Source: Silvimonas iriomotensis (lineage in GTDB: Bacteria > Pseudomonadota > Gammaproteobacteria > Burkholderiales > Chitinibacteraceae). Taken from it: 64,000 bases of DNA. Location: positions 1,295,169 to 1,359,168 of the forward strand of contig NZ_BMLX01000001.1 of NCBI RefSeq assembly GCF_014645535.1. The letters are read 5' to 3'. Shown here in pieces: positions 22,113 to 25,055 of this stretch. Position 1 is the first letter of the stretch. Each line of letters starts with the position of its first letter. The position numbers were made by a program, and so were the translations under genes. The notes under the pieces are model-generated. The model did not search any database. It was not told the DNA's origin and saw only the letters and a list, made by a program, of their open reading frames with translations.

Positions 22113-22297
22113 GATGATTTCTCCAGGGCGGCAGGCAGACACACGAGCGGTGCATAAAGACACTTCGACCAGACTACACGCCCTTTCCGTGTGGCCCGGG
22201 CAGTACTGTGTCTGCCAATAGATGAATATGTAGAACGCGCCAGCACAAAACAAAACAGGACGCCAAGGCGCCCTGTTTGTGCGAGCAATCGCGTATT

Positions 22298-23365
22298 TTA
22301 CAACGCGCCAACCACGGCGTCGCCCATTTCAGAGCAAGACACTTTGCGCGTGCCTTCTTCGTAGATATCCGCCGTGCGCAGACCATCGGCCAGCACCTTC
22401 TTCACGGCGTTTTCCACGCGCACTGCCGCGGCTTCGTTCGCCAGGCTGTAACGCAGCAACATGGCCAGCGAGAGAATCGTTGCCAGCGGGTTGGCCAGGT
22501 TCTTGCCGGCGATATCCGGTGCCGAACCATGGCTGGGCTCGTACAGGCCCTTGTTGTTCTGGTCCAGCGAGGCCGACGGCAGCATGCCGATGGAACCCGT
22601 CAGCATCGAGGCTTCGTCAGACAGGATGTCACCGAAGATATTGCCGGTCACCATCACGTCAAACTGCTTGGGGTTGCGCACCAGTTGCATGGCCGCGTTA
22701 TCCACGTACATGTGGCTCAACTGCACATCCGGATATTCCTTCGCCACATCGGTGACGATTTCTTTCCAGAACTCGGTGGTTTCCAGCACGTTGGCCTTGT
22801 CGACCGAGCACAGCTTCTTGTTGCGCTTTTGCGCAGCCTGGAAAGCCACGTGGGCGATCCGGCGGATTTCGCTCTCGGCATAACGCATGGTGTTGAAGCC
22901 TTCGCGCTCGCCGGCTTCGTTCACGTGCACGCCGCGCGGCTGACCAAAATAGATGTCGCCGGTCAGTTCACGCACGATCAGGATATCCAGACCGGAAACC
23001 ACTTCAGGCTTGAGCGTGGAGGCATTGGCCAGTTCCGGGTACAGAATGGCCGGACGCAGGTTGGCAAACAGATTCAGATCCTTGCGGATGGCCAGCAGAC
23101 CGCGCTCCGGGCGCAGCGGGCGATCCAGCGTGTCGTATTGCGGGCCGCCCACGGCGCCCAGCAGCACGGCATCCGCTTCGCGCGCCAGCTTCTGGGTGAA
23201 TTCCGGATACGGCGAGCCGTACTGGTCATACGCGGCACCACCCAGCGGGGCTTCGGCGGTTTCGACTGCCAGGCCATCGTTGCGCAGTACGTCGAGCACA
23301 CGTTTCGCCTGGGCGACGATTTCAGGACCAATGCCATCACCGGGCAGAATCAGGATCTTCTTCAT
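22298..23365 (-). CDS. leuB: 3-isopropylmalate dehydrogenase
   Basis: A 355-residue NAD-dependent beta-decarboxylating dehydrogenase, the third step of leucine synthesis. It has the start [17 protein letters not shown], the substrate arginines in [24 protein letters not shown], the catalytic [11 protein letters not shown] segment and the NAD-binding [14 protein letters not shown]. It starts only about 17 nt after a terminator-like hairpin, so expression must depend on read-through or on a regulated structure. Confidence 0.97.
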
Positions 23366-23374
23366 GCTTTGTTT

Positions 23375-23413
23375 TCACCAGAAATAAAAAAGCCCGGCTG
23401 CCCGACCGGTCAT
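23375..23413 (-). CDS. Possible 12-codon leader peptide before leuB
   Basis: ATG at 23413 opens a short frame, MTGRAAGLFYFW, ending in TGA 10 nt before the leuB ATG. It runs through the descending arm and U-tract of the hairpin. An in-frame GTG at 23434 would extend it by seven residues. AGGT stands seven bases before the ATG. There is only one Leu codon, so classic leucine attenuation is not obvious, and the frame may be chance. Confidence 0.25.
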   Translation of the reverse strand: MTGRAAGLFYFW

Positions 23414-23442
23414 GTCCTGACCTGTCGCGCTCACGCCGGGCT
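23382..23442 (-). terminator. Terminator or attenuator between nagB and leuB
   Basis: On the reverse strand AGCCCGGC (23442-23435) pairs with GCCGGGCT (23398-23391), enclosing an inner near-perfect stem GACAGGTC / GACCGGTC. A run CTTTTTTATTT follows. This is a complete intrinsic terminator for nagB, yet it lies immediately before leuB with no room for a promoter, so it is either an attenuator or a leaky terminator. Confidence 0.75.
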
Positions 23443-23457
23443 CGATTTTGAAAAATC

Positions 23458-24192
23458 TCAGCTGTGCGAGAGCTTGTAGTTCACATCGCAATCCGTCAGC
23501 ACAATCACGCGCGGATGGGTTTGCAGCAACGTTGCCGGCACTTGCGTCGTGATCGGACCATTGACGGTGCGATCGAGGATCTCGGCCTTTTCCTGCCCCT
23601 TGACCACCAGCAAGATGGACTTGGCATGCAGGATGGAACCCATACCCATGGTCACGGCGTGTGTCGGTACTTCGTCAATCGAGTTAAAGAAGCGCTTGTT
23701 GGCTTCGCGGGTGTCTTCCTTGAGCGTTACCTTGTGGGTAAAGCGCGAAAGCGTGGTATCCGGCTCGTTAAAACCAATGTGGCCGTTGTGGCCAATACCC
23801 AGCAGTTGCATATCCACCGGGCCTTGCTGATACAGCGCTTCGTCGTAACGACGGCATTCGGCTTCGATATCGGCCGCATTGCCGTTGGGCACATGCGTGT
23901 TTTTCGGGTCGATATCAATATGGTCGAACAGGTTGCGCTGCATGAAACTGCGGTAAGACTCCGGATGCGTCACCGGCAGGCCGACGTATTCATCCAGGTT
24001 AAACGTGCGCACTTCCTTGAAACTGATCAGGCCTTGCTTGTAGCTCTTGACCATCTCCTGATACAGGCCCACCGGCGAACCACCGGTAGCCATGCCCAGC
24101 ACCGCATTCGGGCGGCCACGGACAACGGACATCATCAAATCAGCTGCAACGCGATCGAGCTCAGCCTGGTTCTTGAACTTGTGAAGAATCAT
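23458..24192 (-). CDS. nagB: Glucosamine-6-phosphate deaminase
   Basis: A 244-residue enzyme that converts glucosamine 6-phosphate to fructose 6-phosphate and ammonia in amino-sugar catabolism. It shows GMATGGSPVGLYQEMV (phosphate loop), FNLDEYVGL with the catalytic Asp67, LGIGHNGHIGFNEP with the catalytic His, and THAVTMGMGSILHAK. It is shorter than E. coli NagB (266) and resembles the short Bacillus form. It lies between leuD and leuB, an unusual place, with 221 nt before it and a terminator behind it. Confidence 0.95.
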   Translation of the reverse strand: MILHKFKNQAELDRVAADLMMSVVRGRPNAVLGMATGGSPVGLYQEMVKSYKQGLISFKEVRTFNLDEYVGLPVTHPESYRSFMQRNLFDHIDIDPKNTHVPNGNAADIEAECRRYDEALYQQGPVDMQLLGIGHNGHIGFNEPDTTLSRFTHKVTLKEDTREANKRFFNSIDEVPTHAVTMGMGSILHAKSILLVVKGQEKAEILDRTVNGPITTQVPATLLQTHPRVIVLTDCDVNYKLSHS

Positions 24193-24307
24193 GATTTCGT
24201 TTCCCCGTACTTATTTTTTAATCAGAATGTAAGACCTGAAGCACGAACTATAGCAACTACCAGCGCGTGGTGCTGCGGTCGGCCCAATAATACCGCCATT
24301 CTGCGTT

Positions 24308-24379
24308 ATACGGCGGCCACAACAAGCCGCCATATAGCGTTTGGGACAACCCGGGTAAATTTCCTTGCCCGGATTGTCC
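24308..24379. other. Two stable hairpins in the leuD-nagB gap
   Basis: ATACGGCGGC-N8-GCCGCCATAT (24308-24335, 9 of 10 pairs) and GGACAACCCGGG-N12-CCCGGATTGTCC (24344-24379, 11 of 12 pairs) lie side by side downstream of leuD. No T-run follows either on the reverse strand, so they look like mRNA-processing, stability or rho-assisted termination structures rather than intrinsic terminators. Confidence 0.6.
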
Positions 24380-24413
24380 TGGGGAAACGCAATTTTTACC
24401 GCTACTGCGCCAG

Positions 24414-25055
24414 TCAGTCGGCAAACAGCCAGGGCTGGGTCCGGCGATGGCGCGCTTCAAACGCCTTGATATCGTCGGCGTGCTGCAGCGTCAGGCCGAT
24501 TTCATCCAGCCCTTCAAGCAGGCAATGCTTGCGGTGGCCGGTGATATCAAAGCTGTACGACTTGCCCGACGGCGTGGTCACGGTTTGCGCGGCCAGATCA
24601 ACGTTCAGGCGGTAGCCTTCTGTCGCCTCGGTTTCCTTGAACAACTCTTCGACTACTTCGGCCGGCAACACGATCGGCAATACGCCGTTCTTGTAGCAGT
24701 TGTTAAAGAAAATATCGGCAAAGCTGGGGGCGATCACGGCTCGGAAACCGTAGTCGTCCAGCGCCCACGGCGCATGCTCGCGGGAGGAGCCGCAACCGAA
24801 GTTATCGCGTGCCAGCAGCACTTGCGCGCCGGCATAGCGCGGGAAATTCAGCACGAACTCCGGGTTCACCGGACGGGTGCTGTTATCCATGCCCGGTTCG
24901 CCGTGATCCAGATAGCGCCACTCGTCAAACAGGTTCGGGCCAAAGCCGGAACGCTTGATCGACTTGAGGAATTGCTTCGGAATAATGGCGTCGGTATCCA
25001 CGTTGGCCCGATCAAGCGGGCAAACGAGGCCATTCAATTGCGTAAAAGCTTTCAT
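24414..25055 (-). CDS. leuD: 3-isopropylmalate dehydratase small subunit
   Basis: A 213-residue swivel-domain subunit that partners LeuC to isomerise 2- to 3-isopropylmalate. It has the motifs [20 protein letters not shown] near the start and [16 protein letters not shown] around residues 80-95, which contacts substrate. Length agrees with other proteobacterial LeuD. It lies downstream of leuC and the entericidin gene on the same strand. Confidence 0.97.

What the first reader, a model, noticed from the sequence alone, without database searches (positions are those of the whole stretch)
23375..23442. Terminator-like hairpin with mini-ORF immediately before leuB
A full intrinsic terminator (8-bp outer stem, inner stem, U-run) lies only about 17 nt before leuB. 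There is no space for a promoter between them, so leuB must be reached by read-through. A 12-codon frame with AGGT at good distance runs through the descending arm and ends 10 nt before the leuB ATG. This looks like an attenuator, although the peptide ends FYFW rather than with Leu codons. It may be the old leuD-leuB leader that nagB now precedes.
Basis: partly seen in the sequence, partly recalled or inferred. Interest (0 to 1): 0.55.

Follow-up and report, generated by a model that had tools for sequence, protein, structure and literature searches.

The report
Ordinary nagB terminator before leuB
The hairpin just before the leucine-synthesis gene leuB is real, but comparison with relatives shows that it is the transcription stop signal of the neighbouring gene nagB, not a leucine-sensing switch; how leuB is transcribed past it remains open.

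Summary
On the minus strand, between nagB (24192-23458) and leuB (23365-22298), lies a strong intrinsic terminator: a 54-nt hairpin at 23443-23390 (-36.4 kcal/mol, z -5.2) with TTTTTTATTT. Its T-tract ends 16 nt before the leuB ATG. The window lies in a Silvimonas-like member of the Chitinibacteraceae. A hairpin plus T-tract follows nagB in 33 of 35 distinct nagB 3' regions of the family; the two misses carry one by inspection. This includes genera in which leuB is elsewhere or about 1 kb away. The sequences differ between genera. leuD-leuB spacers without nagB (5 of 24) and leuB upstream regions without nagB (3 of 13) are nearer to shuffles. So the hairpin belongs to nagB. The 12-codon mini-ORF is not kept even within the genus, holds one Leu codon and runs through the terminator arm: no leucine attenuator, no old leuD-leuB leader. 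No ordinary promoter fits after the T-tract, so leuB probably depends on read-through of a transcript begun upstream or inside nagB; that step is inferred. Ordinary find, new member of a known kind. In passing: a fixed-length 49-bp dyad element, tens to over a hundred exact copies per genome, in three sister genera.

The parts
24414..25055 (-). leuD, 3-isopropylmalate dehydratase small subunit
   Evidence: NCBIfam NF002458/TIGR00171 above cut-off
23458..24192 (-). nagB, glucosamine-6-phosphate deaminase, the gene that the terminator follows
   Evidence: NCBIfam TIGR00502 above cut-off
23390..23443 (-). terminator hairpin: 9-pair outer stem GAGCCCGGC/GCCGGGCTT with inner stems
23382..23391 (-). 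T-tract TTTTTTATTT of the intrinsic terminator (its first two T's also pair at the stem base)
   Evidence: sequence
23375..23413 (-). 12-codon frame MTGRAAGLFYFW*, judged a chance frame
23375..23379 (-). likely leuB ribosome-binding site GGTGA, 9 nt before the ATG
   Evidence: sequence
22298..23365 (-). leuB, 3-isopropylmalate dehydrogenase, one copy in the genome at E <= 1e-100
22253..22278 (-). terminator-like hairpin just after leuB

Best explanation
The feature is the Rho-independent terminator of nagB. RNA polymerase leaving nagB makes a GC-rich hairpin followed by a U-tract and mostly stops there, which fixes the nagB mRNA 3' end. nagB sits between leuD and leuB in most of the family but not in three genomes of one genus, so it probably came in there with its own terminator (inferred). 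In this genome leuB starts 16 nt after the U-tract, too close for an ordinary promoter, so leuB is most likely transcribed by polymerases that read through the leaky terminator, started upstream of leuC, upstream of nagB or inside nagB (inferred). The terminator would then lower leuB relative to nagB with no leucine sensing. Shown: hairpin, T-tract, family-wide association with nagB, absence of a conserved leader peptide. Inferred: termination in the cell, its leakiness, the source of leuB transcripts. The confidence given is for the nagB-terminator reading; for the read-through source of leuB it is about 0.6.
For: Fold and T-tract. Hairpin plus T-tract in 33 of 35 distinct 120-nt regions after nagB, against 27 of 175 mononucleotide shuffles; both misses carry hairpins by inspection (L005 a very long nested one, L029 AAAGAGGGGCTTGCCCCTCTTT followed by TTCAC; sequences). 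Present too in Iodobacter (L044, L047, L052 and the two MAGs L045, L046), where leuB is not within 3 kb, and in Jeongeupia and Chitinolyticbacter, where 0.9-1.4 kb separate nagB from leuB. leuD-leuB spacers without nagB: 5 of 24 (shuffles 16 of 120). leuB upstream regions without nagB or leuD in the locus: 3 of 13 (shuffles 7 of 65). In 26 of 43 family genomes nagB lies directly before leuB (gap under 500 nt), in 14 of these with a spacer under 100 nt. One leuB per genome in 43 of 43, so leuB must be transcribed here. No rise of synonymous conservation at the 3' end of nagB that would mark a hidden promoter (10 genomes).
Against: No RNA data, so neither termination nor read-through is shown. 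A sigma-70-like pair inside nagB (TTGGCC-17-TTTAAC/T, window 23795-23767; scores 5.84, 9.4, 5.8, 5.8 in four Silvimonas-type genomes) and one overlapping the hairpin (ATGACC-18-TTTTAT, 6.78) cannot be excluded; the scan finds 1.7 hits of score 6 or more per kb on this strand, so these scores mean little, and the matrix was recalled, not fitted.
Confidence: 0.85

Rival explanations
1. A leucine-responsive attenuator: a ribosome on the mini-ORF decides whether the terminator forms, as in leader-peptide attenuation of leu operons.
For: A terminator close before a leu gene, and a 12-codon frame with an SD-like AGGT.
Against: The ATG frame is absent in the two nearest relatives: L003 has an ATG in another frame that runs into leuB, L004 has ATT at that place. 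One Leu codon. The frame overlaps the terminator arm and U-tract instead of ending before it. The best structure with the 3' arm blocked is 10.3 kcal/mol weaker. The hairpin is found after nagB also where leuB is not next.
Confidence: 0.03
2. The terminator is an efficient full stop and leuB has its own promoter, overlapping the hairpin and T-tract or using a non-sigma-70 sequence.
For: Chitinibacter, Chitinilyticum and some Deefgea have 155-459-nt spacers with room for a promoter, and 5 of 6 Chitinibacter have a terminator after leuD too, so separate units occur in the family. Promoter-like pair 6.78 at 23413-23384.
Against: In the window only 16 nt separate the T-tract from the ATG; a start site 7 nt after that -10 would cut the leuB SD; its -10 (TTTTAT) lacks the A at position 2.
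Confidence: 0.15
3. The hairpin mainly stabilises or processes a joint nagB-leuB mRNA and terminates little.
For: Short spacers (66-93 nt) with leuB directly after the hairpin recur in several genera.
Against: The T-tract is kept across genera although the hairpin sequence changes, which an RNA-stability role alone would not need.
Confidence: 0.06

Closest known systems
Rho-independent (intrinsic) transcription terminator
   Same: GC-rich hairpin directly followed by a U-tract, 14 nt after the nagB stop codon
   Different: Its T-tract ends only 16 nt before the next start codon on the same strand
Internal terminators that set transcript ratios in ABC importer operons of Ruminiclostridium cellulolyticum (PMC9045158; outline and abstract seen)
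   Same: A stem-loop between two genes on one strand that would lower the downstream gene
   Different: There measured; here inferred. That abstract reports lower U content for internal terminators; here the tract is T6AT3
Leader-peptide attenuators of leu operons (recalled)
   Same: A terminator before a leu gene
   Different: No Leu-rich leader, no conserved frame, wrong geometry, hairpin goes with nagB

Membership tests
Intrinsic terminator | GC-rich stable hairpin beyond chance | tested here: met
   -36.4 kcal/mol, z -5.21
Intrinsic terminator | U-tract directly after the stem | tested here: met
   TTTTTTATTT at 23391-23382
Intrinsic terminator | Position kept after the same gene in relatives | tested here: met
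   33 of 35 distinct nagB 3' regions, both misses explained by inspection
Intrinsic terminator | Transcripts end there in the cell | not testable with these tools
   no RNA data held
Leader-peptide attenuator of a leu operon | Short leader ORF rich in Leu codons, kept in relatives | tested here: not met
   one Leu codon; ATG frame absent in L003 and L004
Leader-peptide attenuator of a leu operon | Leader ends before the terminator | tested here: not met
   frame 23413-23375 runs through the 3' arm and T-tract
Leader-peptide attenuator of a leu operon | A competing antiterminator structure | tested here: inconclusive
   best structure with the 3' arm blocked is 10.3 kcal/mol weaker than the terminator fold; only this alternative was tried
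Leader-peptide attenuator of a leu operon | Hairpin goes with the leu gene | tested here: not met
   goes with nagB; 3 of 13 leuB upstream regions without nagB or leuD, 5 of 24 leuD-leuB spacers
Known cis-regulatory RNA family (Rfam 15) | Match at gathering score | tested here: not met
   0 matches in the whole window

The most novel reading that the evidence does not exclude
The nagB terminator is a regulated valve: nagB and leuB levels are tied through tuned or antiterminated read-through, so that amino-sugar supply from chitin sets leuB expression in these chitin degraders, and the short spacers in Silvimonas, Amantichitinum, Andreprevotia, Chitiniphilus and some Deefgea are kept for that reason.
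Probability: 0.07. Interest if true: 0.4.

Novelty: new member of a known kind. Interest (0 to 1): 0.15.

Why it matters
It removes a false lead (a leucine attenuator) and leaves a small testable point: the only leuB of this genome starts 16 nt after a strong terminator, so either intrinsic terminators here leak enough to feed a biosynthetic gene or there is an unseen start site. nagB between leuD and leuB is a clean natural case for how a gene with its own terminator is tolerated inside a pathway cluster.

Tried and rejected
Leucine attenuator: rejected on non-conservation of the frame, codon content, geometry and association of the hairpin with nagB. Old leuD-leuB leader: rejected; most leuD-leuB spacers without nagB are short or lack such a hairpin (5 of 24 pass the same test, shuffles 16 of 120). 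Known RNA element: no Rfam match. Hidden promoter in nagB: third-base conservation at the 3' end of nagB is unremarkable, 0.60-0.67 in the last windows; a weak promoter-like pair is there, not excluded. Mobile repeat: the window hairpin occurs once in its genome. The repeat-like palindrome that fills the terminator loop in the sister genome G041 has only two weak matches in the window's genome.

Limits. In one search the terminator test is crude: it takes the best hairpin of at most 61 nt, and in L008, L010 and L014 it picked an extended or another hairpin than the compact one printed. Distinct sequences only were counted; duplicates between the two collections were dropped. Of the 143 leuB-bearing genomes of the order search only 30 had loci, 5 of them of this family, so the group without nagB rests on those plus genomes of the family. 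shuffles keep base content only.

Literature: the searches gave one paper on internal terminators (PMC9045158, abstract and outline seen) and nothing on leuB attenuation in this group (0 papers) or on the 49-bp element; for the other papers only listings were seen.

Full report
What is there. On the minus strand the gene order is leuC, leuD (25055-24414), nagB (24192-23458), leuB (23365-22298), then an asd-like frame (leuD, nagB and leuB named; leuC and asd are named from recall of sequence and order). The 92-nt spacer between nagB and leuB holds a hairpin at 23443-23390 and the T-tract TTTTTTATTT at 23391-23382. The fold is -36.4 kcal/mol, z -5.21. Placed after the last 150 nt of nagB, the outer pairs form with probability 0.80-1.00. 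The leuB start codon is 16 nt beyond the T-tract, with GGTGA as its likely ribosome-binding site.

Where it comes from. NagB is 98% identical to that of Silvimonas terrae and S. amylolytica, and the family search holds three other genomes of the same genus and 39 of other genera. In 26 of 43 family genomes nagB lies directly before leuB (gap under 500 nt), in 5 it lies 0.9-1.4 kb before it, in 9 (one genus, Iodobacter-like) it is not in the leuB locus, and in 3 (another genus) leuD is followed by leuB without nagB. Outside the family the loci seen have leuD, or nothing recognised, before leuB. The simplest history is an insertion of nagB between leuD and leuB within this family, or its loss in the three; no tree was made.

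The comparative test. If the hairpin were a leu leader it should go with leuB; if it is the nagB terminator it should go with nagB. A hairpin with T-tract follows nagB in 33 of 35 distinct sequences (shuffles 27 of 175), and the two misses have hairpins by inspection. It follows nagB in Iodobacter, Jeongeupia and Chitinolyticbacter, where leuB is not next. Without nagB, leuD-leuB spacers pass in 5 of 24 (shuffles 16 of 120) and leuB upstream regions in 3 of 13 (shuffles 7 of 65). The sequence of the hairpin changes completely between genera (GAGCCCGGC in Silvimonas, AGAGGGGC in Chitinibacter and Deefgea, GACCCAAACCCC in Chitiniphilus), while position and T-tract stay. This is the pattern of a gene terminator.

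The mini-ORF. MTGRAAGLFYFW* starts in the loop and reads through the 3' arm and T-tract. In L003 the ATG is in another frame, and in L004 there is none. A GTG frame VSATGQDMTGRAAGLFYFW* has a counterpart VSATGQAWTSRAAGLFYFW* in L003, but in L004 its frame runs on past the start of leuB, so it too is not kept. Such frames are expected by chance in 2% (random window stretches) to 6% (spacer shuffles) for ATG, and 18% for any start.

How leuB is transcribed. The genome has one leuB. A second terminator-like hairpin follows leuB (22278-22253). No ordinary promoter fits after the T-tract. Read-through from upstream, or from a start inside nagB, is the simplest source; a weak promoter-like pair inside nagB recurs in four genomes but lies in conserved coding sequence and scores near background, and third-base conservation gives no hint of a promoter. 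Internal terminators that set the ratio of flanking transcripts have been measured in Ruminiclostridium (PMC9045158, abstract). The read-through step here is inference.

Verdict.

Noticed in passing
L010, L014, L022-L026, L029, L030, L113 (leuB upstream); L199-L238 (large stretches): A fixed-length 49-bp dyad element GGGTAT-N37-ATACCC. The exact form GGGTAT-N36-TATACCC occurs 27-140 times per strand in each of 15 genomes of three genera (Chitinibacter, Chitinilyticum, Deefgea) and 0-1 times per strand in the other 28 family genomes; the reversed control pattern occurs 0 times in 42 of 43 and once per strand in G040. In 150 genomes of the order, five genomes outside these genera have 1-3 matches. 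With up to 1 mismatch: 62 in 400 kb of G007, 31 in 200 kb of G019, 13 in 200 kb of G011, almost only at spacer 37. Conserved blocks about 10 bp apart (GGGTAT, CTnnAG) and self-pairing barely above cross-pairing (0.40 v 0.36 in G007) suggest a protein-binding DNA site more than an RNA hairpin. Of 106 copies 60 lie outside crude ORFs, 2 of these 60 between divergent genes, where 21% of the placeable intergenic bases lie. Function unknown to me; nothing found in print.
   Followed up: partly
L005 2566-2735 (G041:C1:442660-442829): In this sister genome the loop of the nagB terminator is filled by a long nested palindrome (whole 166-nt spacer -84.6 kcal/mol) whose inner part is a dispersed repeat: 10 places at E below 1e-4, the spacer itself included; 8 weaker matches in G042 and 2 each in G040 and the window's genome.
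   Followed up: partly
window 24193-24413: The leuD-nagB spacer on the minus strand holds two inverted repeats by eye (GCGTTT..GGACAATCCGGG ... CCCGGGTTGTCC..AAACGC and TATATGGCGGC ... GCCGCCGTATA) without a T-tract; possible operator or structured region before nagB.
   Followed up: no
L008, L011, L015, L016, L018: About 0.9-1.3 kb, probably an extra gene, lies between nagB and leuB in Jeongeupia and Chitinolyticbacter.
   Followed up: no
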